Positions 11,120 to 27,988 of a stretch of DNA of 64,000 bases are shown here, piece after piece. Every line of letters begins with the position of its first letter. Position 1 is the first letter of the stretch. Both the position numbers and the translations under genes were made by a program. The notes below the pieces were generated by a model. It saw only the letters and a program-made list of their open reading frames with translations, was not told where the DNA came from and did no database searches. Source of the DNA: Winogradskyella alexanderae (GTDB lineage: Bacteria > Bacteroidota > Bacteroidia > Flavobacteriales > Flavobacteriaceae); assembly GCF_020166335.1 (NCBI RefSeq), contig NZ_JAIUJR010000006.1, forward strand, positions 124,001 through 188,000, in the 5' to 3' direction.

Positions 11120-11965
11120 ATGAAACTTAAATATATATTACCATTAGTACTTTTAGTACTCGTATTCTCATGCTCTACAGACGATGATGATAATACTAAT
11201 CCTGTAAACGAAGTCGAAGGTTTATTACTAGTAAAAGAAATTGTTAATGGCAACCAAACCATAGAGCTTTTTAACAAAAAAGGTATGTTTGAAACTGGTT
11301 ACAATGAAATTAGTATACGTCTAAAAGATAATACAACTGATACTTACTACGAAGATGCTATTTTATCATGGATGCCAATAATGCAAATGCCTACAATGCA
11401 ACATTCTTGTCCTAAATCAGCAATTACAAAAGCGGATGGAAAAGATACGGTTTACAAAGGCTTTATTATCTACCAAATGACTAATATAGACAGTTCTGGA
11501 TGGTCATTAACGCTAGACTATACCATTGATGGCATGGACTATTCTGTAACAGAAACCATCAATGTTATGCAATACGAAAACCAAAATGTAGCGAGCTTTA
11601 TGGCTAGCGATGACTCTAGATATATTTTGGCATTAATCGAACCAAAAGACCCAAGCATTGCTATCAATGAAATGAAAGTTGGTTTATTTAAAATGCAAAA
11701 TATGATGACATTCCCTGTTGTTGAAGATTATACCATTGCTCTAGATCCACGTATGCCTGGCATGGGAAATCACAGTTCACCGAACAATACAGACCTTACT
11801 TATAATAGTGTTGATAATTTTTATTTTGGAGATCTATCCTTAACCATGACTGGGTATTGGAAACTGAATCTTAAGTTAATGAATTCTGGTGACGAAGTTT
11901 TAAAAGGTGAAGATGTCACCGAAGAAAATGAAGCTAGTAGTCTTTACTTAGAATTAGAGTTTTAA
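11120..11965 (+). CDS. Met/His-rich lipoprotein, probable periplasmic or surface copper binder
   Basis: 281 residues, lipobox C18 (VFSCS) followed by an Asp-rich spacer. The protein seems to have two similar beta domains. The first carries WMPIMQMPTMQHSCP (about residues 91-105), the second DPRMPGMGNHSSP (about 212-224); both look like paired Met/His copper sites as in YtkA/FixH-like or PCu(A)C-like proteins. It lies between a Cys-motif gene and an OprC-like TonB receptor. I infer that it binds copper for uptake to supply NosZ; domain naming is uncertain. Confidence 0.75.
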   Translation: MKLKYILPLVLLVLVFSCSTDDDDNTNPVNEVEGLLLVKEIVNGNQTIELFNKKGMFETGYNEISIRLKDNTTDTYYEDAILSWMPIMQMPTMQHSCPKSAITKADGKDTVYKGFIIYQMTNIDSSGWSLTLDYTIDGMDYSVTETINVMQYENQNVASFMASDDSRYILALIEPKDPSIAINEMKVGLFKMQNMMTFPVVEDYTIALDPRMPGMGNHSSPNNTDLTYNSVDNFYFGDLSLTMTGYWKLNLKLMNSGDEVLKGEDVTEENEASSLYLELEF

Positions 11966-11977
11966 AACTTTTCTTAC

Positions 11978-12062
11978 TGTCATTCAGAACGAGGCACGAA
12001 GTGAAGAATCTATTAAAATAACTGACTTTTTTTAGATTCTTCGGCTTTGCCTCTAAATGACA
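11978..12062. repeat. 85-bp imperfect inverted repeat (TGTCATTC...AATGACA hairpin)
   Basis: The left arm begins TGTCATT, continues with GAGGC and ends GAAGAATCTA. The right arm runs TAGATTCTTC, GCCTC, ATGACA. The arms pair imperfectly around a 20-nt A/T-rich centre. Elements with TGTCATTC...GAAGAATCT arms are widely scattered in Bacteroidota intergenic regions as REP-like palindromes. It lies between the copper lipoprotein and its receptor and could end or dampen transcription between them. Confidence 0.75.
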
Positions 12063-12091
12063 AAATCCGTTAAACGCAAAAAATATTGGCT

Positions 12092-14092
12092 ATGAAAAAG
12101 CTAATCACAATAATGCTTTGGATACTCTTTTCATCACTTGGTTTTAGTCAAGAAAAGAAAAACGAGCAAAAAAAAGATACCACAAAGCTCGAAGAAGTCG
12201 TTATTAAAACACGACGTAAACTTAGTAGCTACAGGCAAGAAAAAACCTTATCTAGTATAGACGACTATTTAGAAAAGTCTAACAACGTCACCATGATAAA
12301 ACGTGGTAATTATGCATGGGAACCAACCATAAACAATATGGTTAGTGACCGATTGGTAGTCACTATTGATGGTATGCAAATTTTTGGTGCTTGTACAGAT
12401 AAAATGGATCCAATCACCTCTTATGTCGATGTTTCAAATCTTGAAAAAGTAACCGTAGGTTCTGGCCAAGAAGGCACGGAAAATGGACATTGTGTGGGTG
12501 GAGGAATCGATTTGCAATTACCAACTTCAAAATTTAACGAATCTGGTCTAAAAACAAGTGCAGATTTAGGCTATGAAACCAACGGCAACTTTATTGCTAC
12601 AGGTTTAGACCTGGAGTATTCTGGACAGAAGTTCTTTATTAGCGCTGACGGAATTTTCAGAAAATCTGAAAACTATGATGCTGGTAATAATTTAGAAGTT
12701 TTATATTCTCAATTTCAGAAGTATAATATTTCGTTACAATCAGGTTATAAAATTTCAGAAAATCATAGCGTCGATGCCAATATTATTTATGATAGAGCAA
12801 CAGATGTTGGCTATCCTGCCTTACCAATGGATGTGTCTTTAGCCGAAGCCCTAATTACATCTTTTACACACAACTATAAACCAGAGGATAAAGCCTTAAA
12901 AACGCTTGAAACCAAGTTGTATTTTAATACAATTACACATATTATGGACGACACCAAACGTCCAGATGTACCAATACGTATGGATATGCCTGGCTGGAGT
13001 GATACTTTTGGGTTTTATAGCAAAGCAGATGTTTTAAAAGGAAAGCATCACTTTACATTTAACCTCAATGGGTTTTATAACAAATCGCTTGCTGAAATGA
13101 CCATGTTTTCTAACAATCCTAATGAGCCAGATATGTTTATGTACACATGGCCAGACATTAGAACCTTATACTCTGGTATTTTCGTAAAAGATGATTGGCA
13201 TTTTGCTGATGGTAAATCATTATCGTCATCGGTGAGATTGGGCTATCACACCAACAGAATTGCAAAAGAAGTTGGTGTTGAAAGTCTTCAAATATTTCAT
13301 CCCAATATTGACGACCAACAAAGTCGATTTTTAATGAGTCTGGCATCTTCTTATAACATAAAAAAGGAAGATTCAAATATCGCTTTTGGTCTAGGCTACG
13401 GAGAACGTGCGCCATCGGTGAGCGAAGGCTATGGATTTTTCTTATTCAATAGTTTTGATAATTACGACTATATAGGAAATCCCAATTTAAAAAATGAAAA
13501 AGCACTCGAGGCTAACTTTAGTTTCTCAAAAACTTATGATAAGTTTAAAATTGGTTTAGAATCTTCTTATTTCTATATCATGGATTACATCATAGGCGAT
13601 ATTGCACAAAATGTAAGTTCTATGACCATTGGTGCCAATGGAGTCCGTGTATATACTGCCTTAGATAACGCTTCAATTTTTGATGTGTATGTAAATAGTA
13701 GTTATACTATTTCTGCTAGATTTTCAGTAAACGGAACTGTAGGTTACAACTACGGCAAAGGTAGTAATAGTGAAAATCTACCATTAATTAGACCATTTTC
13801 TTACTTCGCTGAATTAAATTATAATAAACCCAAGTTTAATGCTTCCTTACAACTCGATGGTAACGGTAACCAAAGTAATTACAGTAGTTTTTATGGCGAA
13901 AATGAAACCGCTTCTTATGCTATTTTAAATCTTAATTTGGGCAATGCCTTTTATGGCGAAAAAGGAAGAACCATTTTAAAATACGGCATAGAAAATATTT
14001 TAGATGCCAACTATTCCACCTATGCAGATTGGAATAATATTCCGAGACAAGGACGTAATTTTTACATCAATATATCTTATGTATTTCCTTGA
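12092..14092 (+). CDS. TonB-dependent outer membrane receptor, OprC/NosA-like copper importer
   Basis: 666 residues from ATG 12092 (a TTG two codons earlier lacks support). Signal peptide to about residue 20 (LGFSQ), plug domain about 30-160, then a beta-barrel ending in aromatic F-P (SYVFP). The plug has CTDKM (C101, M105), the CxxxM motif, and the barrel has HIM (H283, M285), the HxM motif; together these are the Cu-binding residues known from Pseudomonas OprC. NosA of P. stutzeri is a homologue needed for copper loading of NosZ. The nos cluster directly upstream supports copper import for N2O reductase. Confidence 0.9.
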   Translation: MKKLITIMLWILFSSLGFSQEKKNEQKKDTTKLEEVVIKTRRKLSSYRQEKTLSSIDDYLEKSNNVTMIKRGNYAWEPTINNMVSDRLVVTIDGMQIFGACTDKMDPITSYVDVSNLEKVTVGSGQEGTENGHCVGGGIDLQLPTSKFNESGLKTSADLGYETNGNFIATGLDLEYSGQKFFISADGIFRKSENYDAGNNLEVLYSQFQKYNISLQSGYKISENHSVDANIIYDRATDVGYPALPMDVSLAEALITSFTHNYKPEDKALKTLETKLYFNTITHIMDDTKRPDVPIRMDMPGWSDTFGFYSKADVLKGKHHFTFNLNGFYNKSLAEMTMFSNNPNEPDMFMYTWPDIRTLYSGIFVKDDWHFADGKSLSSSVRLGYHTNRIAKEVGVESLQIFHPNIDDQQSRFLMSLASSYNIKKEDSNIAFGLGYGERAPSVSEGYGFFLFNSFDNYDYIGNPNLKNEKALEANFSFSKTYDKFKIGLESSYFYIMDYIIGDIAQNVSSMTIGANGVRVYTALDNASIFDVYVNSSYTISARFSVNGTVGYNYGKGSNSENLPLIRPFSYFAELNYNKPKFNASLQLDGNGNQSNYSSFYGENETASYAILNLNLGNAFYGEKGRTILKYGIENILDANYSTYADWNNIPRQGRNFYINISYVFP

Positions 14093-14106
14093 AATGTTTA
14101 TGAATA

Positions 14107-14571
14107 TTACTTTATCCAAAATACATCTGTCGTATTCTCAACAAAAGATTCAGAATTATGAATTTTTTCAATATGAAGAAATTCTGCTTCTGTTGCTACG
14201 TTCTGAATTTCAGGAAAGAGTACACGTTCTTCAAACCTAATATGTTGTTCTAATTGGTCTTCAATATGTTGCAAGGTTATGGTGTCATCATTGCTTTTTT
14301 CAAACAATTGTATTATGTTTTTGTGTTCTGTCAAGGCACGTTTTACCAATTCATGGTCATTGCCTAAAACAGGAAAAATGTGTGTTTCTTCTATTTCAAA
14401 ATGCGGAATTAAATGGGTTTTGTAAAACCAACTGGCATACGTCCTAATGCGTATTGGTGCTATATGATATCGAAAACCCATTCTAATTTTATAACACAAT
14501 AACAAGCCAAAATGATGCTCTCTGCTTAATGGTTGCAATGCTTTATGTCTTTTTAAAGGTTTAAGTGGCAT
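14107..14571 (-). CDS. Hemerythrin-domain protein
   Basis: 154 residues, one hemerythrin/HHE four-helix bundle. Di-iron ligands are seen as SREHH near the start, HFEIEETHIFP in the middle, LTEHKNI, then LEQHIRFEERVLFPEI. Such proteins bind O2, NO or iron in the cytoplasm. The start overlaps the end of the upstream membrane-protein gene by 11 bases, so the two are coupled. With Ric and two Rrf2 regulators nearby, an NO/oxygen stress role is likely but inferred. Confidence 0.88.
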   Translation of the reverse strand: MPLKPLKRHKALQPLSREHHFGLLLCYKIRMGFRYHIAPIRIRTYASWFYKTHLIPHFEIEETHIFPVLGNDHELVKRALTEHKNIIQLFEKSNDDTITLQHIEDQLEQHIRFEERVLFPEIQNVATEAEFLHIEKIHNSESFVENTTDVFWIK

Positions 14572-15754
14572 ACGTTTTTTGTTTAATACTATTGAATAAA
14601 ATAAAACAAATCCCTAAAGGCAATAAAATGCTAAATAAAAACAATAGTAGATAATACTGTGGAAGAATTCCACTTTTAAAATAATACTTAATACCTTGTA
14701 TTAACAACAATAATTCTGTTAACGCAAAGCCTAATACAAAACTATAGATTCCAAAAGTTAATGATTTTGAAACCGTAACCAAATCACTTTTCAAAATAAA
14801 AGCAAATAAAAATCCAGTAATAACACCAAGCATTAATAAATGGATAAAGCCAATAATAAAATTGCGATGCTCATAAACCACTTGCGAAAATTCAGGTAAA
14901 ATGGAAAGTGACTGAAATATCACTTTTAAGAGAAAACAAATTAGCGTAAAAACGTACATATAAAATACCAGTTTGTTTTTCTGATTAGCTAGAGTATTGA
15001 ATTTCGGTTTTAAAACTTGAAAGAATTTATACAACACTAAAATTTGAATTACAACACCAAAACCATTAATCCATAATAAACTATCATGAGGTGCAAACCA
15101 TTGAATTGGCAATGCAAAGGTTAATACAGTTGATGTTATTAATAACCAGAAAAACTGTCTGAATATTTTAGAATTTTGAATATTTAAAAGATGAAAAAAG
15201 ACCGCTAAAGCAGCTATTAAAAACCAGCCATTAAACTGAAAATGCAAAAAGAATTGTATCGCTATTTGATAAAACGCCGAAGTCTGACCAAGTGTTGCTA
15301 CTGCTGGACCTAAGCACCAAACACCAAATGTAGATACAACCATAAATAGCAACGCTGTTTTTAACAACTTTTGACTTACACTTGATGTGATTTTATGATG
15401 TTTCCAAATCAAATACACAAAGTAATAACTACAAAAAATATGTAAGGTTGAAAACGAAATGGAAATAGCAGCATACCCTTGAAACGGGAAACTCAGCATC
15501 ATACCAACAACGGCAAATTCGGTTAACCAAAACAACCGATTGAAAACCTTGAGTTTCTCGGGCACAAAATAATGCACAAAAAGAACATACAACATTAAGT
15601 ACACCCAACCCAACATCGCTGCATGAGAATGCGCGTGCGTTAAAAACCTATAATTAATACCAATAGAGTCTATAAACGAAAAACGCAACGCCAAGCCCAT
15701 TAGCGCAGCAATAAAGAAATTAATTAAACAGACTATGACTAATTTTTTTGGCAT
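14561..15754 (-). CDS. Polytopic His-rich membrane protein, haem-copper-oxidase-like, unknown role
   Basis: 397 residues with about 11-12 membrane helices covering the whole chain. Histidines sit inside helices: THAHSHAAMLGW (H40, H42, H44), HFQFNGWFLIAAL and FIHLLMLGVITGF. The pattern resembles haem ligation in haem-copper oxidase subunit I or NnrS-type proteins, although the classic oxidase motifs are not all recognisable. It has its own transcription unit after the ric terminator and is translationally coupled to a hemerythrin gene. A haem-bearing protein in nitrogen-oxide metabolism is the best guess; the family name is not certain. Confidence 0.7.
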   Translation of the reverse strand: MPKKLVIVCLINFFIAALMGLALRFSFIDSIGINYRFLTHAHSHAAMLGWVYLMLYVLFVHYFVPEKLKVFNRLFWLTEFAVVGMMLSFPFQGYAAISISFSTLHIFCSYYFVYLIWKHHKITSSVSQKLLKTALLFMVVSTFGVWCLGPAVATLGQTSAFYQIAIQFFLHFQFNGWFLIAALAVFFHLLNIQNSKIFRQFFWLLITSTVLTFALPIQWFAPHDSLLWINGFGVVIQILVLYKFFQVLKPKFNTLANQKNKLVFYMYVFTLICFLLKVIFQSLSILPEFSQVVYEHRNFIIGFIHLLMLGVITGFLFAFILKSDLVTVSKSLTFGIYSFVLGFALTELLLLIQGIKYYFKSGILPQYYLLLFLFSILLPLGICFILFNSIKQKTYAT

Positions 15755-15796
15755 CTTTTAAATTGATGAAGTAGAAATGTAATGAATTAAGATAAA

Positions 15797-15830
15797 AATC
15801 CTGAAATGTTTAGGGGAACATTTCAGGATT
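15797..15830 (-). terminator. Rho-independent terminator after ric
   Basis: A perfect 14-bp stem (AATCCTGAAATGTT / AACATTTCAGGATT) with a 6-nt loop, followed on the minus strand by TTTTT... It separates the ric unit from the membrane protein-hemerythrin operon on the same strand. Confidence 0.88.
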
Positions 15831-15865
15831 AAACTACAGGTTAAAGAGTAAATAAAGGGTTGCTA

Positions 15866-16597
15866 TTAATCAAATTGTGTTTCTAAGGCTATAGCTTTAG
15901 GGAATAAAATATTATTTTCTAGGTGAATGTGTAAATGCAAGTCTTTTTCAAATTCTTCTAGCATAGCAAAGGCTACTTTATACGTATTACAAGCATCAGC
16001 TGGTGGATTGTAATTGTCTGTTAATTCTGCAATGTCTCTAAAACGTTGGCCTTCATTATCGTGTTCTTCCTTCATCATAGCAATTGGATTTTCTACAGTG
16101 CCAAATTGCGGTGATTGGATTGCTTCATTTTTTAATTTAGCACTAACCATTCTTTTTACAAACGGAAAAAGGATAAGTTCTTCTTTTTTCATATGTGATG
16201 CTAATTCGCCTGCCGAAGCTGTAAATAGCTCGTTTATTTTAAACAACTCTGGATGACGCTCGCCATGCACACGACATAATTTGTTTAAAAACTGAAGTAA
16301 CACAGGTATTTTTTCTTCTACATATCTGTGGTGTTTTTTCTCAATATATTCTGCCAACAAGTCTAGTGGCCAAGACTTATAGTCAATACTTTCGCCTGTT
16401 TTAGCATTTAAAACGTCATTTAGTTCTGCTATAAGCACAGCTTCATCAATTCCTTTTTTTTCGCAGGCTTCGGCGACTGTTCTATTACCATTGCAGCAAA
16501 AATCAATTTTGTATTTAGCAAAAATAGCTGCAGTTCTAAAATCGTCTGCCACATACTGCCCTATTTCTTTTTCGGTGTTTTTTTGTAATACTTCCAT
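15866..16597 (-). CDS. ric: Iron-sulfur cluster repair di-iron protein Ric (ScdA/YtfE/DnrN)
   Basis: 243 residues, the usual length. The N-terminal DUF542/ScdA_N domain carries IDFCCNGNRT (C34, C35). A hemerythrin-like four-helix bundle follows, with di-iron ligands in KKHHRYVEEK, RVHGERHPE, ASHMKKEE, MKEEHDNEG and HIHLENNILFP. Ric repairs Fe-S clusters damaged by NO or oxidants and is a classic NsrR-type target. It lies 50 bp downstream of an Rrf2 gene on the same strand, with a palindrome between them that recurs upstream of that regulator, pointing to NO-responsive control. Confidence 0.95.
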   Translation of the reverse strand: MEVLQKNTEKEIGQYVADDFRTAAIFAKYKIDFCCNGNRTVAEACEKKGIDEAVLIAELNDVLNAKTGESIDYKSWPLDLLAEYIEKKHHRYVEEKIPVLLQFLNKLCRVHGERHPELFKINELFTASAGELASHMKKEELILFPFVKRMVSAKLKNEAIQSPQFGTVENPIAMMKEEHDNEGQRFRDIAELTDNYNPPADACNTYKVAFAMLEEFEKDLHLHIHLENNILFPKAIALETQFD

Positions 16598-16613
16598 ATT
16601 TATAATTTATTTC

Positions 16614-16627
16614 GGACAAATCTATCC
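16614..16627 (-). promoter_or_regulatory. Candidate Rrf2 operator upstream of ric
   Basis: Read on the minus strand it is GGATAGATTTGTCC, an imperfect GGAY...GTCC palindrome. The ric start codon follows 16 bp later. It matches the site before the Rrf2 gene at 10 of 14 positions and the site at 10596-10609 at 11 of 14. Confidence 0.55.
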
Positions 16628-16647
16628 TATTTATATTGAAATTTTTT

Positions 16648-17082
16648 TTAGGTTTTTAAAAATGAAACACCAGACTTAATCTCTAGCGCTAATTGTTCTA
16701 ACGTTGTGTTGTCTAGCATGTCCCTCAACTCTTCTCTTACCAACTTAAATTTATCGTGTACAGGACATGGATGATTTTCGTCGCAAATATGTAATCCTAA
16801 ACCGCAACCATTGTAAATACTATCACCATCAATAGCATAAACGATTTGAGATAGTTTTGTCGTCTCAATTTTTGTTTTATCAATCTCAAAACCACCATAA
16901 GCACCTCTTACAGAAGTTATGATATTATGTCTTACTAAGGCTTGTAGAATCTTTGCTGTAAAGGCTTGAGGTGAATCTATATTTTCAGATATTTCTTTCG
17001 GACTCACACGCTTATTTTCCGCTGAGTTCACCGCAATATATATCGCTGCTTTTATACCATACTCGCAAGCTTTCGAAAACAT
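16648..17082 (-). CDS. Rrf2-family regulator, NsrR-like, next to ric
   Basis: 144 residues. Winged helix in about residues 1-70 (YGIKAAIYIAVNS; wing GAYGGFEI). Cys residues C93, C100 and C106 match the spacing of the first Rrf2 protein in this window (C-x6-C-x5-C) and lie where Fe-S ligands of NsrR/IscR are found. Known NsrR proteins release DNA when NO attacks the cluster and so derepress ric-type genes. A palindrome upstream suggests autoregulation. It is paralogous to the regulator at the nos cluster but has a different operator, so the two may split the regulon. Confidence 0.9.
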   Translation of the reverse strand: MFSKACEYGIKAAIYIAVNSAENKRVSPKEISENIDSPQAFTAKILQALVRHNIITSVRGAYGGFEIDKTKIETTKLSQIVYAIDGDSIYNGCGLGLHICDENHPCPVHDKFKLVREELRDMLDNTTLEQLALEIKSGVSFLKT

Positions 17083-17712: not shown

Positions 17713-18182
17713 GGTTCTGTTGCATCTATAGAATCAAGTTTAAAGAAATTATATCATTGAATTAAATGTTTATGTTCAAAGGTCATTGTTTTCTAAAGTC
17801 AATCATTATTCAAGCCGTTTATTTCAAGTTTAGATTCGGGTTGAGTTATCGTGAGATTGAGGAACTCATGGCCATACGTGGTGTTAAAGTAGACGATGCT
17901 ACCGTCCAACTATGGGTATTTAAGTTTACCCCGCTTTTAGAAAAAGAGTTTAGGAAACGTAAGAAATCTGTTGGAAGAAGATGGCGAATGGGTGAAACCT
18001 ATGTCAAGGTCAGGAGTAAGTGGTGTTATTTATATAGAGCGGTTGACAAACAAGGCAATACCATCGATTTTCTTTTGACTAAGAGACGAAAGTGTATGAG
18101 TGCTCAATCGTTTTTAATCAAAGCGATTGAAAATAATGGTAGGCCAGAATTAATCAATATCGATAAGTTTGAGATGGAATAA
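17713..18182 (+). mobile_element. Relic of an IS6-family insertion sequence
   Basis: GGTTCTGTTGCAT at 17713-17725 matches the IS6 left terminal inverted repeat (GGTTCTGTTGCAAA). The transposase frame 17766-18182 covers about 138 of the usual 230-240 residues: FKGHCFLKSII, LSYREIEELM and LYRAVDKQGNTIDF are typical. The first catalytic Asp of the DDE triad is replaced by Gly (RMGETYVKV, G76), and the C-terminus with the Glu and the right inverted repeat are gone. It is a dead fragment, inserted at the left side of the accessory island. Confidence 0.85.
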
Positions 18183-18285
18183 ACAGGTGAAAAATTTACA
18201 AAATGATTAAATTTTAAATATTTCTAATTCTTTTTTATTCGTTTTCAACACATTTTCAAACGAATTAAAACGTTTTCAATACACA

Positions 18286-18669
18286 TTAATTTTTATTTAA
18301 ACTGGTACTGTTTCCTGAAGTTTCTTCAAATAATTCGTGAGTAATGCTCTGTTGATGTTCTGGAGTTACTGACCTTAAGTATTCTAGCAGATCTATCGAA
18401 GTTGGATATCGATTGGTGCTGTTTTTTAATAACCCTGTATAACTTCGCCAATCATATATAAAGTTTTGTATGGCCTTGTTGACTTGCACCTCACCTATTT
18501 CTTGTTGTAATCTATACATAGCTAGGACACCTTTATTGTAATACACAAAATCTTGATGCTCCACTAGGGCAAGAGAAGGTTCTGAGACAGCTTTTTTTCT
18601 TTCCTTATCATAAATCTCTTCTTCTTTAAAAAATTGTTCTACCTCCTCTTCTAAATAATTTTCTGAAGT
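18286..18669 (-). pseudogene. C-terminal fragment of an M1-type (gluzincin) metallopeptidase/ABC membrane protein
   Basis: The minus frame is open from about 18669 to the stop at 18286, about 127 residues: EHQDFVYYNKGVLAMYRLQQ, NFIYDWRSYTGLL, TNRYPTSIDLLEYLR and SVTPEHQQSI. This resembles the helical C-terminal end of large M1-peptidase-domain proteins of flavobacteria, as far as I recall, but the zinc site (HExxH) and all upstream parts are missing. A GTG start inside the frame would be artificial. The break at about 18669 abuts another fragment on the opposite strand, so this is a recombination remnant. Confidence 0.55.
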
Positions 18670-18796: not shown

Positions 18797-19232
18797 TCTA
18801 TTTGTTAGGTCTTTTTACTATTCGTAGATCATCGACTTTCAATGTTATGATTAAGAGGTTTGCACTTTTTCTTTCGGTTTTATAAAGTACACCGCGCCAA
18901 TTAATTGGTTATTTAGCAAAAATGGTAAAAATAGGATGTATTTAATCACCATAGAAGAAATCAATTATAAAGTCAAGACTCCCGCTTAATAAGGCACTAG
19001 AAAAGTCTATTTCAGATTTCATTCAATCCACAATGTACATTATATGACTGGATACCGATACATCTCCTCGCCTAAAAAATATTTTCAGAATTATGTAGGA
19101 GGTCTTATGTAGGCTATAACTAATACTCATCTAGTGAGTTGACTTTCAATTAATTTATGAAATTCCGCACTAAGTTCGGAACCAATATTTTTATCTTTAT
19201 AGTTTTGGAAATGAGATATGTATAATTAAGAT
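18797..19232. other. 436-bp gap left of hamA, no convincing gene
   Basis: No open frame over about 30 codons resembles a protein I know. A short plus frame near 19040-19110 (GYRYISSPKKYFQNYVGGLM then stop) may be another gene crumb. The right end holds the hamA promoter. The stretch is consistent with decayed sequence inside the island scar. Confidence 0.5.
19200..19207 (+). promoter_or_regulatory. -7 element (TAGTTTTG) before hamA
   Basis: Matches TAnnTTTG and lies 26 bp before the hamA ATG. No good -33 TTG is visible at the normal distance. A single promoter here would drive hamA and the overlapping hamB. Confidence 0.5.
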
Positions 19233-20063
19233 ATGCCTAGACAAAATACTTTAATAGGAACCCATCCCGTACCTCCCAATATTATTGGAAGGTGGTTGAA
19301 TAGCACAAACCATCCTGAAACAGATCGTCAATGTCACCGCAGCCTTGCTGAAACTAATAATTTGACTGAAGAGGAGCTTGTTGATTGGCTAGCTGACAAG
19401 ATCATTCTTCATCATTATAAGGAAAGTCAAATAGACAGACTTAAGAATAAATATGGCGAGTTGGGATTTGAAGAATATGCTGAAAATATCCGTATGATAC
19501 CCAATTGGGATGATACCCGGAAAGGGAACATGACCGAGATAATTTTATGTGAGTACATTTTAAGCTCTACAGGCAAGCCACTCATCAAGACCTATCGATT
19601 TAGGTACAGCACTAATGTAGATCAATCCATGAAAGGTGATGATGTGTTGATGGTTGATTATGATAATGAAAATGATGATATAGAAGTATTTCTTGGAGAA
19701 GCCAAATTTAGGCAAGACCCTTCTGCCCAAGTTGTTAGAAATATAGCTGATTCATTATCAACTGATACGAAACCTCTATCATTTACTTTTTTGGTAGAAC
19801 GACTATTGGAATCCGATTCAACCACTGATATTGGTAATCGATTAGACCAATTTGTAGTTGAAACTATAAGGCAACAAGGAAAAATTACATATTCTGGATT
19901 GCTTCTGAGTAAGACAGACTGTGCGGATACCGTTCAAAATAATTTGGATAGTGATAATCAAAAATTGGTTTTTCTTTCTCTAGGAGTTGACGACCCAACT
20001 GCTCTTATGAACAAAGTATTCTCTAAGGCAGAAGAGAAATTAGCTAACCCAGAACAACTATGA
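19233..20063 (+). CDS. hamA: HamA, DUF1837 nuclease of a Hachiman anti-phage system
   Basis: 276 residues, usual DUF1837 size. The core is a PD-(D/E)xK-like nuclease: GNMTEIILCEYIL with E102, then GDDVLMVD (D136/D137), then EVFLGEAKFRQD with E156 and K158, the expected catalytic E-x-K. In characterised Hachiman systems HamA is a nuclease held inactive by HamB until damaged or phage DNA is sensed, then degrades DNA broadly. The stop overlaps the hamB start by 4 bases (ATGA). It is flanked by IS debris and recombinase genes, as is common for defence genes. The catalytic assignment follows from motif matching. Confidence 0.86.
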   Translation: MPRQNTLIGTHPVPPNIIGRWLNSTNHPETDRQCHRSLAETNNLTEEELVDWLADKIILHHYKESQIDRLKNKYGELGFEEYAENIRMIPNWDDTRKGNMTEIILCEYILSSTGKPLIKTYRFRYSTNVDQSMKGDDVLMVDYDNENDDIEVFLGEAKFRQDPSAQVVRNIADSLSTDTKPLSFTFLVERLLESDSTTDIGNRLDQFVVETIRQQGKITYSGLLLSKTDCADTVQNNLDSDNQKLVFLSLGVDDPTALMNKVFSKAEEKLANPEQL

Positions 20064-23000
20064 GCATAGAGAATACACTTGAATCCGTTACTAAGCTAAA
20101 CGACGATAGATACCTTCAGAATCAGGTAGCACAATTGAATGCGAGGTATATTCTTCTAAATACAGATGAAGATAAGGAGAAGTTTCCTAATTACAATGTA
20201 AAGGATGAAGAGATGACCTTACTGGCTTTTCATTATCTGAACCTTGGTTGTAGGTTAGCAGAAAGAGATGCTATCCTTGAAGCCTCTCAACCTTTGGAAA
20301 GAGGAGCTCAAATTTTAGAGTACATTTATGGTTCAAAAAATAACGAGATTCACTTCAGGAATTACCATGTTCTGATCTCAGGCCTTGCCTATTATTCTGC
20401 ATTCCAGTATTCAAAGTCATTTATATTAATAAAGAAGGCGGAGAACGAGACCACTATTGCAAGGCTATTGAGTTTGTTCTTGAGCCGTCGTTTTAATGAA
20501 CTTCAAAATGATATCAATACAATAATTGTCAACAAAGATTACATCAACTTAAACAGAAAAGAAAACGTTGATGAAGCTTCTTCTCGAATCTATGAAATTG
20601 TCATAGCTCGTTCTCTATCAAAAGTTATTAGCTACTTGAACTTTGGGGATGGAGTTTTACTGGAGCATGCCAAGCAGGAGTTAAACACTTTAAAAGATAT
20701 AGCAAGTATAAAAGAGGATGTAGATGTTTGGTGGACTATTAGGTTGATTCTCATCATCATTAGTGGGATTGAACGAGCCTCTTTGTGGAGTGTCCTTACT
20801 AATCATTACATCGATTTGCCTCCTTTGGTATCTAGCTTTATTTACTCTCATGTTTTTGCGAAGAGAAGTAAAATACATGAGTTCTTTACAACGCAGCGAA
20901 GTGCTTTGAACAAAGTGATTAATAAGGAAGATGGTGTAATCATTAGTATGCCAACCAGTAGTGGTAAAACACGAATTGCCGAAGTATCCATACTGGATAC
21001 CAAAGTTAGAAATAACGCTTCAAAAATATTATATATTGCACCCTACAAATCACTTGCCTTTGAGATAGAAAATGATCTAGGAAGAATCTTTGCACCCATA
21101 GGTATTGATGTTTCGCAACTCTATGGTGGAAGTCTATTTAGTAAAATAGATGAGAAACTAATTCAAGATACAGACGTGATTATCGCTACCCAGGAAAAGG
21201 CAAAGGCTCTTTTTAGAAGTGATAGTGAACTCCTAAAAACCATTAAGCTGGTAATCTTGGATGAAGGACACCTTCTCGGTGGAGATGAGAGAAATACAAG
21301 GAATGAATTATTTATGGAGGAACTTAGGTTTCATGTGGATAGAAATGAAGGGAAGTTCATTGTGCTCTCAGCGGTTCTGCCAAACCCAGAAGACCTTTCG
21401 TTTTGGCTTACCAGTTCTGAAGTGAACGTCTTTGAAAGCAACTGGAGACCTTCTGAAGAACGTATGGGTATCTTGGAATGGACAGGTAAGAATGTGAATT
21501 TAAATTGGCAAAGTGCAGATGATGAAAGAAACTCCTTCAACAATCGATTTATTGTAGCCGAAAAGCAGCCAAGAAAACTGCGAGAGCGAGTTGATAAGTA
21601 CATTCCAGCGGATAAGAATGAAGCCGTAGCAGCCACGGCTCTCAAACTCTTCAAATTTGGTCCTGTGCTTATTTATGTTGGGCTAAAAAGGTCTGTTTTT
21701 ACGATGGCCAAGGCATATGAAAAAGTTCTAAATGATGACAATGTGTTTCAATGGAAAAATGAGAACAATTGGCAAGCATTTGAACTGGCATGTATAGAGT
21801 TTGATGGGGAAGATAGTCTATGGCTCCATTATTCAAAGTTGGGCATTCTTTGTCATAACGCGGACTTACCTTCAGACGTTAGGATTCCATTAGAACGTCT
21901 CATGAGAACAGAAAGACCTAGGGTGATTATAGCAACATCAACACTGGGACAAGGTGTTAATCTAGGGGTTTCATCAGTTATTTTTTCAACGCTTCAACAA
22001 GCAAGTCAAAAATTATCTTACAGTGATTTTTGGAATATTGCTGGAAGAGCCGGAAGAGCATTCGTTGACCAAGAAGGAAAAATCCTTGTTGCTCTGGATA
22101 ACTCCAAAAGAGGTACTGTCAAAGAAAGACGTAAGGTTACTAGAACCCAGAGACTCATTTTGCGGTACTTTGACAAGACCAACGTGCAAGATGCTAAGAG
22201 TGGACTCCTTTGGTCTATTAGAGCGATGAAACGCTTTGCCTCATTTGAAGAAGGAATTAGTTTTGAAAAACTACTGGAACTTGTGGCTGAAAATGACTTT
22301 TCTGACTTAGAAGAAAGTCAAGCATTCATTAACGAATTAGACCTTATCGATGATACTCTACTCGCATTGCATCAATTGAGTCATGATGAAATTGATCCAA
22401 CCGACATTACTTGGATAGAGGAATTCTTTAAAAAGTCACTTGCATATTTACAGTGCAAAAAAGATAGCGATGCGAATGCCAATGAACAAGAAGAAGTAAT
22501 TACTTTTTTAAAAGCAAGAATGGTAGGAATTTTAAAAGCTGTGGGGCAAGATTCAAAGGATTGGGATGCTCATATACGCTCAGGTATTCCATTACAGAGT
22601 GACTTAATCCTTGAGCAGCACTTGCAAGAGATTATTGACTTAATTGGAGAGTATTTTGAAAACGATGACCATTCTATTCAAGCTAAAGTTAAATTGCTTT
22701 CCTTGATTGAAGCCATAGTCAATCAAACTCCAGTACTTCAAGATGAGTATCTTGAAAATGAGCGCCTTCATGAAGTTAGAGAGCTTTGGCTTGCTGGTGT
22801 TTCCATGACCAACATCAAAAAAATTGAAAACGCATCCAAGATCGTAAATAAACATTTTTCATTTAAACTTCCTTGGGTGTTGAATGGCCTTGCAAAAAAA
22901 CTCCATGTTTTAGACTTGGAGCATTATTCACAATTACTTCAGGAATTATCTATACTAAGCGAGACTGGCTTACCAGACCTCGTGTCAGTTAAGGTTTATC

Positions 23001-23452
23001 AGGCTGGAATAAGATCAAGACAGGCAGCTATTGAAGTAGCTTCAATGTTCGAAGACGACTCTTGGGATAAGGGAATTAACTACTACAAATACAGTATTAT
23101 TGAAAATGCTGATTTTTATAAAATAATCTTGTCAGATGAAACTTCGAAATGGATAGACCTGTTCTTACAATACAATGAGCGAGAATATATAGTGATTAAT
23201 GAAATTCCACCTTTTTATACAGACGACTTAAGTAATGTATCTGTTGATGTTCTATTACCTAAAACGATAATCCAAAAGCAATATCTCGTTAGCCCAGACT
23301 TAACCGTCATGATACCAGCAGATGCGTTTGACGGTATTTACTTTTCTGAAGTGATTGATAAGGATGGTGTATATTTTCTTCGTGCTAGTGATGGGTATTG
23401 GTACTTACAGGTTGTCAATCCTAACATTGAAGTCCATCGTGAAGAAGATTGA
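20060..23452 (+). CDS. hamB: HamB, Ski2-like DExH helicase of a Hachiman system
   Basis: 1130 residues. A helical N-terminal domain (about 1-285) precedes two RecA-like domains: Walker A MPTSSGKT (297-304), IAPYKSLAFE (Ia), DEGH (401-404), SAVLPNP (III), ATSTLGQGVNLG (V) and NIAGRAGRA (659-667, VI). The QGVNLG/GRAGRA form is that of Ski2-type helicases. A long C-terminal region (about 700-1130) of helical and beta parts follows, as in HamB. Known HamB binds HamA, loads on DNA ends or ssDNA and releases the nuclease. All visible motifs are intact, so the system looks functional. Pairing with hamA and length fit Hachiman better than other helicases. Confidence 0.87.
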   Translation: MSIENTLESVTKLNDDRYLQNQVAQLNARYILLNTDEDKEKFPNYNVKDEEMTLLAFHYLNLGCRLAERDAILEASQPLERGAQILEYIYGSKNNEIHFRNYHVLISGLAYYSAFQYSKSFILIKKAENETTIARLLSLFLSRRFNELQNDINTIIVNKDYINLNRKENVDEASSRIYEIVIARSLSKVISYLNFGDGVLLEHAKQELNTLKDIASIKEDVDVWWTIRLILIIISGIERASLWSVLTNHYIDLPPLVSSFIYSHVFAKRSKIHEFFTTQRSALNKVINKEDGVIISMPTSSGKTRIAEVSILDTKVRNNASKILYIAPYKSLAFEIENDLGRIFAPIGIDVSQLYGGSLFSKIDEKLIQDTDVIIATQEKAKALFRSDSELLKTIKLVILDEGHLLGGDERNTRNELFMEELRFHVDRNEGKFIVLSAVLPNPEDLSFWLTSSEVNVFESNWRPSEERMGILEWTGKNVNLNWQSADDERNSFNNRFIVAEKQPRKLRERVDKYIPADKNEAVAATALKLFKFGPVLIYVGLKRSVFTMAKAYEKVLNDDNVFQWKNENNWQAFELACIEFDGEDSLWLHYSKLGILCHNADLPSDVRIPLERLMRTERPRVIIATSTLGQGVNLGVSSVIFSTLQQASQKLSYSDFWNIAGRAGRAFVDQEGKILVALDNSKRGTVKERRKVTRTQRLILRYFDKTNVQDAKSGLLWSIRAMKRFASFEEGISFEKLLELVAENDFSDLEESQAFINELDLIDDTLLALHQLSHDEIDPTDITWIEEFFKKSLAYLQCKKDSDANANEQEEVITFLKARMVGILKAVGQDSKDWDAHIRSGIPLQSDLILEQHLQEIIDLIGEYFENDDHSIQAKVKLLSLIEAIVNQTPVLQDEYLENERLHEVRELWLAGVSMTNIKKIENASKIVNKHFSFKLPWVLNGLAKKLHVLDLEHYSQLLQELSILSETGLPDLVSVKVYQAGIRSRQAAIEVASMFEDDSWDKGINYYKYSIIENADFYKIILSDETSKWIDLFLQYNEREYIVINEIPPFYTDDLSNVSVDVLLPKTIIQKQYLVSPDLTVMIPADAFDGIYFSEVIDKDGVYFLRASDGYWYLQVVNPNIEVHREED

Positions 23453-23600: not shown

Positions 23601-23822
23601 TTAGGTGAAATAGTTTTCATCTAATGCGCTAGTGCTTCTTCGTGAGTAATTCTTCTTGTGTATAGAATAAGCCGTAAAGCCAAATAAGGCTATTCCAATG
23701 ACAATTATGCCATATTTTAAATACTTGTTTTCCTGCTTCAATTGCCTCACATTGGAAAGCTCAACCATATTTAATTCCTGTGAAGACAAAATTTCAATAT
23801 CATATAGATCGGTATCAATCAT
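23601..23822 (-). CDS. Small single-pass membrane protein coupled to the zinc-ribbon gene
   Basis: 73 residues from ATG 23822. A helical, charged N-terminal half with a heptad-like stretch (NVRQLKQENKYLKYG) precedes one membrane helix (about residues 38-56, IIVIGIALFGFTAYSI) and a basic tail. The start overlaps the end of the zinc-ribbon gene by 8 bases, which decides it over the longer upstream frame. No family recognised. A membrane-tethered small protein co-expressed with a DNA- or RNA-type zinc ribbon. Confidence 0.5.
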   Translation of the reverse strand: MIDTDLYDIEILSSQELNMVELSNVRQLKQENKYLKYGIIVIGIALFGFTAYSIHKKNYSRRSTSALDENYFT

Positions 23823-24186
23823 TTGTGCAAATTTTATAGTGTTCTTTATCGACTTTATAATAATGAACTGTATGTAGGGCATAACAGTTCTTATTTATTG
23901 TTTTGTTGTAGTGGATATGTGTGAAAAGGGAAAAATTAACCCCAATACCCCTGAGGTATTCCTTGTGCACCGTAACTTCTTTTTCACCGTTTAACAACTC
24001 TAATAGTGCATAATATTGCTTCTCTATCGGTTTAAAAAGCTTAGCCAATTCTTTTCGCTTAGCGTTATTTCTTTTATTATGATGCGCCGTCCTACAGGCA
24101 CTGTTGCAGAATGTTTGATTTGATCGTTTGGGTATAAATTCGACCCCACAATACGGACAAATCCGCTTTTCAATTTCATTATTCAT
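23815..24186 (-). CDS. Zinc-ribbon protein of the recombinase-linked module, function unknown
   Basis: 123 residues from ATG 24186 (the earlier TTG-type start adds only MLFKQIT). An N-terminal zinc ribbon/finger: C10, C13 (CPYC), C27, C31 and H35-H36, then a Lys/Arg-rich helix (NNAKRKELAKLFKPI) and a C-terminal domain rich in His and Tyr (FTHIHYNKTI, TVHYYKVDKEHY). The finger looks like the short CPYCG...FC...CR..HH type seen in element-encoded proteins. It is divergent from a MerR-like gene over a shared 77-bp control region. Possibly a directionality or copy-control factor; this is speculation. Confidence 0.6.
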   Translation of the reverse strand: MNNEIEKRICPYCGVEFIPKRSNQTFCNSACRTAHHNKRNNAKRKELAKLFKPIEKQYYALLELLNGEKEVTVHKEYLRGIGVNFSLFTHIHYNKTINKNCYALHTVHYYKVDKEHYKICTND

Positions 24187-24237
24187 AGTAATTTGCTTAA
24201 ATAACATTTACAAATATAGTATTTTTTAATTTTTAAT

Positions 24238-24255
24238 ATTTACATTTGTGTAAAT
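24238..24255. promoter_or_regulatory. Perfect inverted repeat over the -7 element of the MerR-like gene
   Basis: ATTTACA-TTTG-TGTAAAT: 7-bp arms, 4-bp centre. The TACATTTG inside it (24241-24248) fits the -7 consensus TAnnTTTG. A repressor on this site would block the promoter, so autoregulation by the adjacent MerR-like protein is likely. An in-frame TTG at 24246 falls within it and is not a start. Confidence 0.6.
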
Positions 24256-24263
24256 TTAATTTT

Positions 24264-25124
24264 ATGAATGATCAGTTTTATATCAAATTTGGGGAATCAT
24301 TCTATGAAAAATACATTCTCCCTAAAGATCTTGGCCTTAAATCACGGCAGGTTTCCTATTGGCGAGAGAACAAAGTTATCCCCTATTTCTTTGAGACGCA
24401 TCAAAAGCACGGTCGGATGAACATCCCTGAAGCCATTTGGATGATGATACTGAAGGAACTCAGCGACATTGGCATCAGTACTGAAAAATTAAAAATCCTA
24501 TCCTATCAGGTGTGGAATGTTCCAAAGAAGAACAAGTATGCCGACCAGGTCATATTGAAGTATATTCATTCAAAAAAGCCTCTGCTATCAGAAACGGGAA
24601 AAGTTAGCCTAAGAGATACCTTGGCAAATGAAATGGTCATGGACACCCTTAGGGAAGAAATAAACCAATATACCGATATGCTAAAGTCATGCATAGCCAA
24701 CATAAGCCAACCACATTGTATGGTATACAGTCCATTGACGAACGAACATTCATTTTTGGTCAACGATGGTGTTCTAGTAAAAAAACTGGGGAGTCTAACT
24801 TTTGATTACCCACTGATTTCCATTCCCATACTAGGCAAGCTATCTAAGATCATAAGCATCGATCTTAACATAAAACATAAGAATCTGGATTATCTCAGTG
24901 ACCTCGAAAATCAAATCCGGGAAATCGTATTGTTCAAAAAACCAAAAATAGTAGAGATAGCTTTTGATGATGGACACATCAAACCTAGAGTTATTACTGA
25001 AAAGCATGTGAAGCAAGTCGAACTGGCTGACTTCTTTCTGAAAAACAAAATTCCTAAGGGTTCAAAACTCCTAATTGACCCTAGAAGCCAGCACAATTAT
25101 AAATTAACTTTAATTACAAAATAG
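24264..25124 (+). CDS. MerR-like DNA-binding regulator of the integrative module
   Basis: 286 residues from ATG 24264. An N-terminal MerR-type winged helix (about 10-70): LPKDLGLKSRQVSYWRENKV, then GRMNIPEAIWMMILKELSDIG. A helical linker and a C-terminal alpha/beta domain (about 140-286) of unknown kind follow; the latter has VEIAFDDGHIKP and KGSKLLIDPRSQH. No known effector site is recognised. Its own promoter lies within a perfect inverted repeat, and the divergent zinc-ribbon gene shares the region. The serine recombinase follows about 240 bp downstream, so it may control excision or integration. Confidence 0.65.
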   Translation: MNDQFYIKFGESFYEKYILPKDLGLKSRQVSYWRENKVIPYFFETHQKHGRMNIPEAIWMMILKELSDIGISTEKLKILSYQVWNVPKKNKYADQVILKYIHSKKPLLSETGKVSLRDTLANEMVMDTLREEINQYTDMLKSCIANISQPHCMVYSPLTNEHSFLVNDGVLVKKLGSLTFDYPLISIPILGKLSKIISIDLNIKHKNLDYLSDLENQIREIVLFKKPKIVEIAFDDGHIKPRVITEKHVKQVELADFFLKNKIPKGSKLLIDPRSQHNYKLTLITK

Positions 25125-25125
25125 T

Positions 25126-25357
25126 ATGACAACCTATGTAGAACAAATTCAGTCCCTGAAAACACAGCCTGATTTAACCCTGTCGCGTTATGGGCCGAAA
25201 ATCAAATCAGGAACTTCAACAGAAACAATTTCTGGATAACAATGAACTCACAGAATATTTATCTAAAGAATATATCGATTTAAATGAAGCACAAAAAAAT
25301 GAATTAGTCTTGAGTATTTATCAATTCACAAAACTCATTTTTGATTCAGCAAAATAA
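25126..25357 (+). pseudogene. Broken small gene between the MerR-like gene and the recombinase
   Basis: The first frame starts at ATG 25126 (MTTYVEQIQSLKTQPDL) and stops after about 37 codons. The second frame, ATG 25190 to TAA 25357 (55 codons, MGRKSNQELQQKQF ... YQFTKLIFDSAK), overlaps it in another frame. They may be two tiny genes or one gene split by a frameshift. The second shows sensible codon use and ends just before the recombinase ATG at 25365. No family recognised. Confidence 0.35.
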
Positions 25358-25364
25358 CTTTTAC

Positions 25365-27037
<1,673 letters not shown>

Positions 27038-27145: not shown

Positions 27146-27988
27146 TTAATCATCATCGTCTTCTGAGTCTAAGGTTGCAAGTGCTCCTTTCATGTTCACT
27201 TCGTCTAGATCGAAATCTACAATATTTGGTAACTGATCTTTCAAAGCTGCGTAATTACCTTTAAATCCATTATTACTCAACAACAAGGTTTTTAGATTTG
27301 ATAATTGTGCCAGTTCACCTGGTAAATTGCCGTAAAAAGCATTGTTGGATAGGACCAATTCTTCTAAACTTGTTAATTCTCCAATTGCAGATGGAATTGT
27401 GCCAAGTAAATTATTATCAAAAACACTAAGCACTTTTAAGGCCTTTAGGTTGGATACAGTTGACGGGATCTTTCCCATTAAATTATTGCTACTAAGTATT
27501 AGAGTTTCCAGCTTAGTTAAATTTCCAATTGTATTTGGAATTTCTCCGAAAAAATTATTATTGTATAGTTCTAACGCTTTTAAATTTTCTAGGTTACCTA
27601 TAGAAGCAGGGATTGCACCGCTCAAATTATTTGAAAACAACAATATTTTTTCAAGCGAAGTTATTTTTGTTAGGCTTTCTGGTAATGTTCCTTCCAATCT
27701 GTTGAATGCCAAATTTAAAACTCTTAACGATGACAAAGCATCTATTTGTCGTGGTATTTCTCCTTTTAAATTATTAAAAGTTAAATTTAAGGCAACAACG
27801 TTGCCATCCTCAACAGTAACACCATACCAGTCAGTAACCGGAGTATCTAAATTCCATGTTGTTTTCCAATCCTCACCGTTAGTAGCATTAAATAGTGCTA
27901 GGAGCGCGTCCTTTTGTTCTTGGGAAACGTTTGCAAATGTAAATGCAGAAAGCAAGCAACATAATAAGGTTAATTTTAAAGTTCTCAT
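27146..27988 (-). CDS. Exported leucine-rich-repeat protein
   Basis: 280 residues. Signal peptide (cleavage near FTFANV), a cap segment with NGEDWKTTWNLDTPVTDWYGV, then about eight plant-type LRRs of 24 residues (pattern LxxLxLxxNxLxGxIPxxIGxL), ending with an Asp/Glu tail. The cap motif is common in Bacteroidota LRR proteins. No type IX sorting domain is visible at the C-terminus. Probably secreted or periplasmic and involved in protein binding; a specific partner is not known. Confidence 0.88.
   Translation of the reverse strand: MRTLKLTLLCCLLSAFTFANVSQEQKDALLALFNATNGEDWKTTWNLDTPVTDWYGVTVEDGNVVALNLTFNNLKGEIPRQIDALSSLRVLNLAFNRLEGTLPESLTKITSLEKILLFSNNLSGAIPASIGNLENLKALELYNNNFFGEIPNTIGNLTKLETLILSSNNLMGKIPSTVSNLKALKVLSVFDNNLLGTIPSAIGELTSLEELVLSNNAFYGNLPGELAQLSNLKTLLLSNNGFKGNYAALKDQLPNIVDFDLDEVNMKGALATLDSEDDDD

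What the first reader, a model, noticed from the sequence alone, without database searches (positions are those of the whole stretch)
19233..23452. Complete Hachiman (hamAB) anti-phage system on a mobile island
Two overlapping genes, a DUF1837 nuclease with E156/K158 and a 1130-residue DExH helicase with Walker A, DEGH and GRAGRA motifs, match the Hachiman pair. Both are intact, and they sit between IS debris and a serine recombinase.
Basis: partly seen in the sequence, partly recalled or inferred. Interest (0 to 1): 0.7.

Follow-up and report, generated by a model that had tools for sequence, protein, structure and literature searches.

The report
Hachiman phage-defence genes beside tRNA-Met
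A marine bacterium carries an intact two-gene Hachiman system, a known defence against viruses of bacteria, next to a DNA-inserting enzyme that sits at a tRNA gene where several relatives carry other defence genes instead.

Summary
19233-20063 is HamA (PADLOC E 4e-82; PF08878) and 20060-23452 is HamB (PADLOC E 0, matched over 1124 of 1130 residues). The closest solved structures are those of E. coli Hachiman: HamA E156/K158 align with the tested E138/K140, and HamB D401 of DEGH with the tested D431. In a tree HamB groups with HamA-linked helicases, apart from the Hachiman-like candidate PDC-M23. It is a complete known system: a new member of a known kind.

The surroundings are more interesting. 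The serine recombinase gene (25341-27005) ends inside a tRNA-Met gene, so the tRNA's 3' half writes its last residues. In 13 of 14 loci examined of this recombinase subfamily the end is the same. In 10 of the 14, own included, PADLOC-matching genes lie near it (Hachiman, CBASS, type I restriction, BREX and others); in 4 none was found. A congener has the same module, 88% identical over 3.4 kb, with CBASS in place of Hachiman. One relative keeps both ends, 6,768 bp apart. Here the left end was not found, so present mobility is not shown.

The parts
19233..20063 (+). hamA: Hachiman effector nuclease, 276 aa, D-E(X)K type; E156 and K158 are the predicted catalytic pair
   Evidence: PDLC00155 E 4.1e-82; PF08878 64.3 bits; best solved match 8vx9_A HamA E 1.9e-7, E156/K158 aligned with E138/K140
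20060..23452 (+). hamB: Hachiman sensor helicase, 1130 aa, SF2 Ski2-like; Walker A SGKT 301, DEGH 401, GRAGR 662
   Evidence: PDLC00192 E 0, 1236 bits; motifs; best solved match 8vx9_B HamB E 1.4e-69; tree
25341..27005 (+). large serine recombinase, 554 aa; its last 13 residues (VAGTGLEPVTFGL) and stop codon read into the 3' half of tRNA-Met
   Evidence: PF00239 and PF07508; relatives share the same end
26964..27037 (-). tRNA-Met (CAT), target of the recombinase; its 3' half is probably supplied by the island (inference)
   Evidence: ARAGORN; next to the LRR gene in 19 of 19 congener LRR loci scanned
24246..25124 (+). gene travelling with the recombinase, 292 aa from TTG (in-frame ATG at 24264); looks like a MerR-type DNA-binding protein and possible directionality factor (inference from reading the sequence)
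   Evidence: no Pfam match; 93% identical in G026, 76% in G380, 45% in G284, 39% in G029, beside the recombinase each time; not found by tblastn near the recombinase in the other loci
23815..24207 (-). small zinc-finger-like protein of the recombinase module (reading of the sequence)
   Evidence: weak NinG match below cut-off; 88% identical in G026, 49% in G380
23601..23882 (-). small protein of the recombinase module with one likely membrane helix (read from the sequence)
   Evidence: 77% identical in G026, 49% in G380
18909..19139 (+). broken remnant of a tyrosine recombinase just upstream of hamA
   Evidence: 34% over 85 aa with stops, 39.7 bits, to the intact tyrosine recombinase next to hamA in G024; best of 20 shuffled controls 22.3 bits
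18212..18300 (.). stretch shared with the non-coding DNA left of the CBASS cargo in G026
   Evidence: 77.5% over 89 bp, E 6e-12; weaker overlaps with L146 of G380
17766..18182 (+). truncated IS240/IS6-type transposase (IS debris)
   Evidence: PF13610 77.8 bits over positions 3-67 of 139 of the domain; 87% identical over 455 bp to a G029 copy
27146..27988 (-). conserved LRR-protein gene flanking the tRNA, the fixed right-hand anchor
   Evidence: match in 37 of 37 genus genomes, own included; in 35 of them at E 1.5e-90 or better

Best explanation
A type I Hachiman anti-phage system (HamA PDLC00155, HamB PDLC00192) carried beside a serine-recombinase module at tRNA-Met. By homology with the studied complex, HamB and HamA form a heterodimer that patrols DNA. 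When HamB meets damaged or unusual DNA during infection, its ATP-driven movement activates the HamA nuclease, which degrades phage and host DNA and stops the infection at the cost of the cell. The island entered by recombination between the tRNA-Met gene and a copy of its 3' half on the island; that copy also encodes the recombinase's C-terminus and rebuilds the tRNA. Shown here: gene identity, intactness, catalytic residues, the tRNA junction, and cargo differing between relatives. Inferred: complex formation, activity, trigger, and that this copy once moved as described.
For: Full-length profile matches for both genes. Closest solved structures are E. coli ECOR31 HamA and HamB, with catalytic residues aligned that were needed for defence in PMC12278908. 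Tree: own, G024 and a B. finegoldii plasmid form one clade at 100/99, inside a larger group that includes plasmid HamBs next to annotated HamA. Relatives annotated as Hachiman HamA (6 of 7 plasmid records; the seventh is named DUF1837 protein). Recombinase C-terminus encoded by the tRNA-Met half in 13 of 14 loci of the subfamily. Module 88% identical in G026 but with CBASS cargo. Complete 6,768-bp element with a 46-bp direct repeat in G130.
Against: No activity, expression or phage test is possible here. Structure models were unusable (mean pLDDT 37.7 and 32.4), so the HamA-HamB interface was not examined. The best stretch of the match to solved HamB starts at profile position 254, so the N-terminal part is not compared. 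The left attachment site was not found and the left flank is eroded. NCBIfam has no model that names the pair.
Confidence: 0.92

Rival explanations
1. It is a Hachiman-like but separate nuclease-helicase system, such as PADLOC's candidate PDC-M23, rather than Hachiman itself.
For: HamB also matches PDC-M23B at E 2.7e-65; helicases whose partner matches PDC-M23A are its relatives in the tree.
Against: The HamB profile scores 1236 bits against 219 for PDC-M23B. The partner gene is HamA: 13 families listed at E up to 0.1, all HamA. The group holding the PDC-M23A-linked helicases is separate in the tree (99/99).
Confidence: 0.03
2. An intact-looking but silent or inactive Hachiman stranded in a decaying island: left end lost, IS fragment and a broken recombinase next to the promoter region.
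For: Left attachment site not found, truncated IS, broken tyrosine recombinase. Apart from the remnant, DNA similarity to G024 around the hamA start begins only at 19219, 14 bases before the start codon (79 bp at 72%).
Against: Both ORFs are full length with all catalytic motifs, unlike the neighbouring remnants, which suggests they are maintained.
Confidence: 0.15
3. A housekeeping DNA-repair helicase with an accessory nuclease.
For: The helicase core resembles Hel308/Ski2 proteins.
Against: Rare and patchy: full-length HamB of this kind in 2 of 37 genus genomes; one strong HamA match among 397 family genomes, the own one; a 45%-identical HamA sits on a plasmid.
Confidence: 0.01

Closest known systems
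Hachiman HamAB of E. coli ECOR31 (8VX9, 8VXA, 8VXC, 8VXY; PMC12278908)
   Same: HamA D-E(X)K nuclease plus HamB Ski2-like helicase, with the same catalytic residues
   Different: distant in sequence (HamA E 1.9e-7, HamB E 1.4e-69); best HamB stretch starts at profile position 254
HamAB of Bacteroides finegoldii plasmid NZ_OY725938.1
   Same: same HamA/HamB subfamily: HamA 45% and HamB 48% identical, same 4-bp gene overlap
   Different: carried beside conjugation-type genes and a site-specific integrase on a plasmid, not beside a tRNA-Met serine recombinase
HamAB of uncultured Winogradskyella NZ_CANMXL010000003.1 (G024 / L084)
   Same: nearest relative found: HamA 58%, HamB 66% identical
   Different: next to two intact tyrosine recombinases and followed by an extra 270-aa gene overlapping hamB; no relative of the own serine recombinase found in that genome
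PADLOC candidate system PDC-M23
   Same: two genes, nuclease-like plus related helicase
   Different: different nuclease family and separate helicase clade
Defence islands at integration hotspots, e.g. of E. coli (PMC10121019, start of abstract seen in the listing)
   Same: defence systems clustered at certain chromosomal spots
   Different: here the spot is tRNA-Met in Flavobacteriaceae, served by one serine recombinase subfamily whose C-terminus is encoded by the tRNA
tRNA-adjacent genomic islands of Riemerella anatipestifer (PMC6764341, PMC9745183; passages seen)
   Same: islands next to tRNA genes with direct repeats (53 bp and 19 bp)
   Different: driven by tyrosine, not serine, integrases; one is at tRNA-Arg

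Membership tests
Hachiman | HamA of the DUF1837/PF08878 family | tested here: met
   PF08878 64.3 bits, cut-off 25; PDLC00155 E 4.1e-82
Hachiman | D-E(X)K nuclease residues in HamA | tested here: met
   E156/K158 align with E138/K140 of 8vx9_A; D136, D137, E156, K158 kept in G024
Hachiman | HamB SF2 helicase with Walker A and DEGH | tested here: met
   PDLC00192 over 1-1124; SGKT 301, DEGH 401; 8vx9_B best solved match
Hachiman | hamA and hamB adjacent, same strand | tested here: met
   4-bp overlap
Hachiman | helicase groups with HamA-linked HamB | tested here: met
   tree of 23 helicases plus 3 outgroup rows; 8 upstream partner proteins scanned: 5 best-match HamA, 3 best-match PDC-M23A
Hachiman | N-terminal helical region of HamB that binds HamA | tested here: inconclusive
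   N-terminus covered by the PADLOC HamB profile, not in the best stretch against 8vx9_B; model pLDDT 32.4
Hachiman | HamAB complex, DNA-damage-triggered nuclease, phage protection | not testable with these tools
   needs bench work
PDC-M23 | PDC-M23A nuclease partner | tested here: not met
   HamA lists 13 families at E up to 0.1, all HamA
tRNA-Met serine-recombinase island | recombinase C-terminus encoded by the tRNA-Met 3' half | tested here: met
tRNA-Met serine-recombinase island | two attachment sites bounding the element | tested here: not met
   one copy of the tRNA half in the own genome at up to 3 mismatches; two copies in G130

The most novel reading that the evidence does not exclude
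The window holds one member of an undescribed family of small integrative elements in Flavobacteriaceae: a tRNA-Met-specific large serine recombinase, whose C-terminus and stop codon are encoded by the tRNA half it carries, shuttles interchangeable anti-phage systems (Hachiman, CBASS, BREX, type I restriction, Thoeris-type and others), stacks in tandem, and rebuilds the tRNA at each insertion. More distant recombinases of the same kind end at other RNA genes (tRNA-Arg, tRNA-Leu, tRNA-Asn, tmRNA), so the target may be written in the C-terminus of each branch.
Probability: 0.45. Interest if true: 0.5.

Novelty: new member of a known kind. Interest (0 to 1): 0.32.

Why it matters
The Hachiman pair itself adds one more, divergent, intact member from a marine genus where this subfamily is rare. 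If the island family is real, the tRNA-Met spot is a predictable address: reading what lies beside this recombinase in Flavobacteriaceae would be a simple way to find defence systems, including unknown ones (for example unnamed genes in G380).

Tried and rejected
Structure prediction of HamA and HamB from two-sequence alignments gave unusable models (pLDDT 37.7 and 32.4), so no fold search was run. The genome-contig scan returned one locus, G024. Viral-contig scans with HamA and with the recombinase confirmed none. Phage records held no HamA match at E 1e-5 and no recombinase match at E 1e-10. Plasmids held 7 HamA matches at E 1e-5 and no recombinase match at E 1e-20.

Search for the left attachment site: pattern scans and local alignment (best score 16 in the own flank, 18 in one shuffle of it; G026 19 against 22 and G001 18 against 20) found none. 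The ORF at 18286-18564 gave only a sub-threshold Peptidase_M1 match (13 bits) and no convincing relative in the loci held at that time; I reject it as evidence of anything.

I first thought the long gene left of the CBASS genes in G026 might be the parent of that ORF; it is a PLD/SNF2 helicase protein and the ORF had no match in it. The third gene overlapping hamB in G024 has no counterpart in the own island (best 24.3 bits, inside hamB itself) and no family match at the limits used.

The cargo survey is biased: for each recombinase locus I picked ORFs by eye from stretches of about 3 to 20 kb and scanned 1 to 8 proteins; only in G130 did I find both ends of the element. A control of 10 proteins, 5 from L095 and 5 from elsewhere in the window, gave 2 with matches at E 1e-8 (mad3, 155 bits in two stretches; DpdF, 64 bits over part of the model), neither part of a system that I recognised.

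Rows left out: of 18 recombinase matches I used 5; the other 13 (21-38% identical, E 1.5e-53 or weaker) were left out of the count. Ten of these 13 are held as loci: eight have another RNA gene at the recombinase end (tRNA-Arg 3, tRNA-Leu 2, tRNA-Asn 1, tmRNA 2), one (L042) has none called, one degenerate match (L048, G005) carries the tRNA-Met half. Their cargo was not scanned. From the HamB tree I left out G826 (713 aa), G696, and the plasmid records H4 and H6.
Full report
What was checked. HamA matches PADLOC HamA PDLC00155 (E 4.1e-82, residues 4-273) and Pfam PF08878 (64.3 bits, cut-off 25). HamB matches PADLOC HamB PDLC00192 (E 0, 1236 bits, residues 1-1124). The motifs are at E156/K158, SGKT 301, DEGH 401 and GRAGR 662. 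NCBIfam gave no family for HamA and 18 general helicase families, all below cut-off, for HamB.

Against solved structures, the two-sequence HamA profile finds 8vx9_A (HamA, E 1.9e-7) and the HamB profile finds 8vx9_B first of 49 (E 1.4e-69), ahead of Brr2-like, Hel308 and Ski2 helicases. 8VX9 is the E. coli ECOR31 complex. In those alignments E156/K158 fall on E138/K140 and D401 on D431, by counting residues in the printed lines. Of PMC12278908 I saw the abstract and outline, section 6 part 1 of 3, section 27 and found passages. Mutation of E138/K140 or D431 abolished defence there. Its abstract gives the mechanism: HamB constrains HamA on intact DNA, DNA damage activates the nuclease, and all DNA in the cell is degraded.

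Phylogeny. A tree of 23 HamB-like helicases plus 3 outgroup rows (17 of 23 inner branches well supported) puts own HamB with G024 (66% identical), then with the B. finegoldii plasmid protein (100/99), then in a group of six with Methylobacter, G665 and Paenisporosarcina. A second group (99/99) holds nine helicases: G693, G722, G498, G629, G738, G708, G782, G655b and G826b. Of these I tested the partner proteins of three; their best match is PDC-M23A, strongly in G722 and G629 and weakly in G693 (E 4e-9, with HamA at 1e-5). G826b had no upstream ORF of fitting size in the stretch held. The partners of own HamB and of G665 and the B. finegoldii plasmid match PDLC00155 best. G011 and G421 have long branches and their place is unsure. 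G826 (713 aa), G696 and two plasmid records were left out.

Distribution. In the genus (Winogradskyella, from the title of the G024 record) a full-length HamB of this kind is present in 2 of 37 genomes, own and G024 (which searched 60 genomes in all and scored at most 12 candidates in each). The HamA profile found 1 strong match, the own one, and 3 weak ones in 397 family genomes. In 395 phylum genomes, 15 had HamB-profile matches at E 1e-30, two of them above 1,000 bits, own and G665. This is the patchy pattern of a transferred gene pair.

The right end of the island. tRNA-Met (CAT) lies at 26964-27037 on the minus strand. The recombinase ORF runs into it and stops inside it, at TTATGA (27000-27005). 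The LRR gene beyond the tRNA has a match in all 37 genus genomes, own included, in 35 of them at E 1.5e-90 or better. In the 19 congener LRR loci that I scanned the tRNA is next to it in 19. I compared the DNA next to the tRNA in 12 other genomes (13 stretches; the fourteenth, L083, is the HamAB locus of G024). The LRR gene is shared by all 12; beyond the tRNA the DNA differs almost throughout, with a few shared ORFs between single pairs. This is an insertion hotspot.

The recombinase subfamily. I used 14 loci: own, G026, G029, G010 and G001 (37 genomes; 70% identity or more over the aligned part) and G380, G284, G296, G108, G232, G137, G130, G150 and G395 (397 genomes, E 1e-80; of these G232, G137, G130, G150 and G395 are only 34-36% identical). 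Thirteen weaker matches were left out. In 13 of the 14 the protein ends VAGTGLEPVTFGL (one residue unread in G296), written by the tRNA-Met 3' half; G108 lacks it. After TTATGAG, 6 of the 13 continue as a tRNA and 7 into unrelated DNA. The second form is what stacking of a further island at the same site would leave (inference). In G130 two copies of the tRNA half, 46 bp identical, lie 6,768 bp apart in direct orientation, one at the recombinase end and one in non-coding context: a complete element. Of ten weaker recombinases held as loci, eight have another RNA gene at their end (tRNA-Arg 3, tRNA-Leu 2, tRNA-Asn 1, tmRNA 2), one has none called and one degenerate match has the tRNA-Met half. 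So insertion at tRNA-type genes is common in this wider family, and the Met target marks the near branch.

Cargo. PADLOC scans near these recombinases (proteins picked by eye, 1 to 8 per locus) gave: own Hachiman; G026 CBASS (cyclase, E1-E2, JAB, NucC); G029 type I restriction genes with a UG13b-type reverse transcriptase; G296 a ThsB-type protein; G380 candidate PDC genes; G232 and G137 type I restriction; G130 a SoFic-type protein, between the two element ends; G150 and G395 BREX. Nothing was found at E 1e-8 in G284 (5 proteins), G010 (4), G108 (1) and G001 (1); the last three have broken or partial recombinases. So 10 of 14 loci are positive. A control of 10 other proteins had 2 matches at E 1e-8, one of them 155 bits, so a single PADLOC match is weak evidence; the multi-gene sets (Hachiman, CBASS, BREX, restriction) are the strong part.

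Swap of cargo. Own 23608-27006 is 88.4% identical to G026 over 3,400 bp, and all four module genes are shared. Left of 23608 own has HamAB and G026 has CBASS. A further 89-bp stretch (own 18212-18300) is shared left of both cargos (77.5%, E 6e-12). This is best read as one element backbone with exchanged cargo.

The left side is decayed. One copy of the tRNA half was found in the own genome at up to 3 mismatches. Between 17.7 and 19.2 kb lie a truncated IS240-type transposase and, at 18909-19139, a broken tyrosine recombinase related to the intact one next to hamA in G024 (39.7 bits; best of 20 shuffles 22.3). HamAB therefore probably rode on a tyrosine-recombinase element before it came to lie in this serine-recombinase island (inference).

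Literature. A search for Winogradskyella, defense system and Hachiman together found no paper. Searches combining serine recombinase or serine integrase with tRNA-Met, defence islands, BREX or Flavobacteri(aceae) (listings and abstract starts, 10 of 13 papers listed) showed none whose title or abstract start describes this tRNA-Met element family. Two papers on Riemerella islands next to tRNA, of which I saw passages, concern tyrosine integrases. The library lacks most subscription journals, so it may be in print elsewhere.

Verdict. The finding is right and ordinary in kind: a complete, intact Hachiman system, a new member of a known family. The tRNA-Met recombinase islands with exchangeable defence cargo are the part worth a follow-up.

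Noticed in passing
L136 5994-9460 (G011:C1, about 4449994-4453460): A congener carries a different Hachiman pair: HamA matching PDLC00163 (E 5e-105) and an 841-aa HamB matching PDLC00186 (E 6e-278).
   Followed up: partly
L084 11389-12201: In G024 a 270-aa gene overlaps the end of hamB by 11 bp and has no match in Pfam, NCBIfam or PADLOC at the limits used; a possible third Hachiman-linked gene, not found in the window.
   Followed up: partly
L092 7601-10849: Next to the CBASS cargo of G026 lies a 1082-aa protein with a PLD-like domain and a SNF2-type helicase, possibly another defence gene.
   Followed up: partly
window 11120-17082: Genes that read like a TonB receptor, NnrS, a hemerythrin/ScdA protein and an Rrf2 regulator (names from reading the sequence, no family search) lie left of the island. 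G026 has the same locus left of its island and G001 has it near its recombinase remnant; in G034 the ScdA-like gene lies far from the tRNA-Met site.
   Followed up: partly
window 26967-27006: The own tRNA-Met carries a paired T-stem change (A/T for T/A) relative to most congeners; exact copies of its 25-base stretch are in G006 and G007 of the 37 genomes searched.
   Followed up: no
L082 5749-13264 (G029): A reverse transcriptase of the UG13b type sits inside a type I restriction operon, between the methyltransferase and specificity genes.
   Followed up: no
L040, L041, L043, L044, L045, L046, L047, L049: Distant relatives of the recombinase end at other RNA genes: tRNA-Arg, tRNA-Leu, tRNA-Asn and tmRNA. 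Target choice may have switched along the family.
   Followed up: partly
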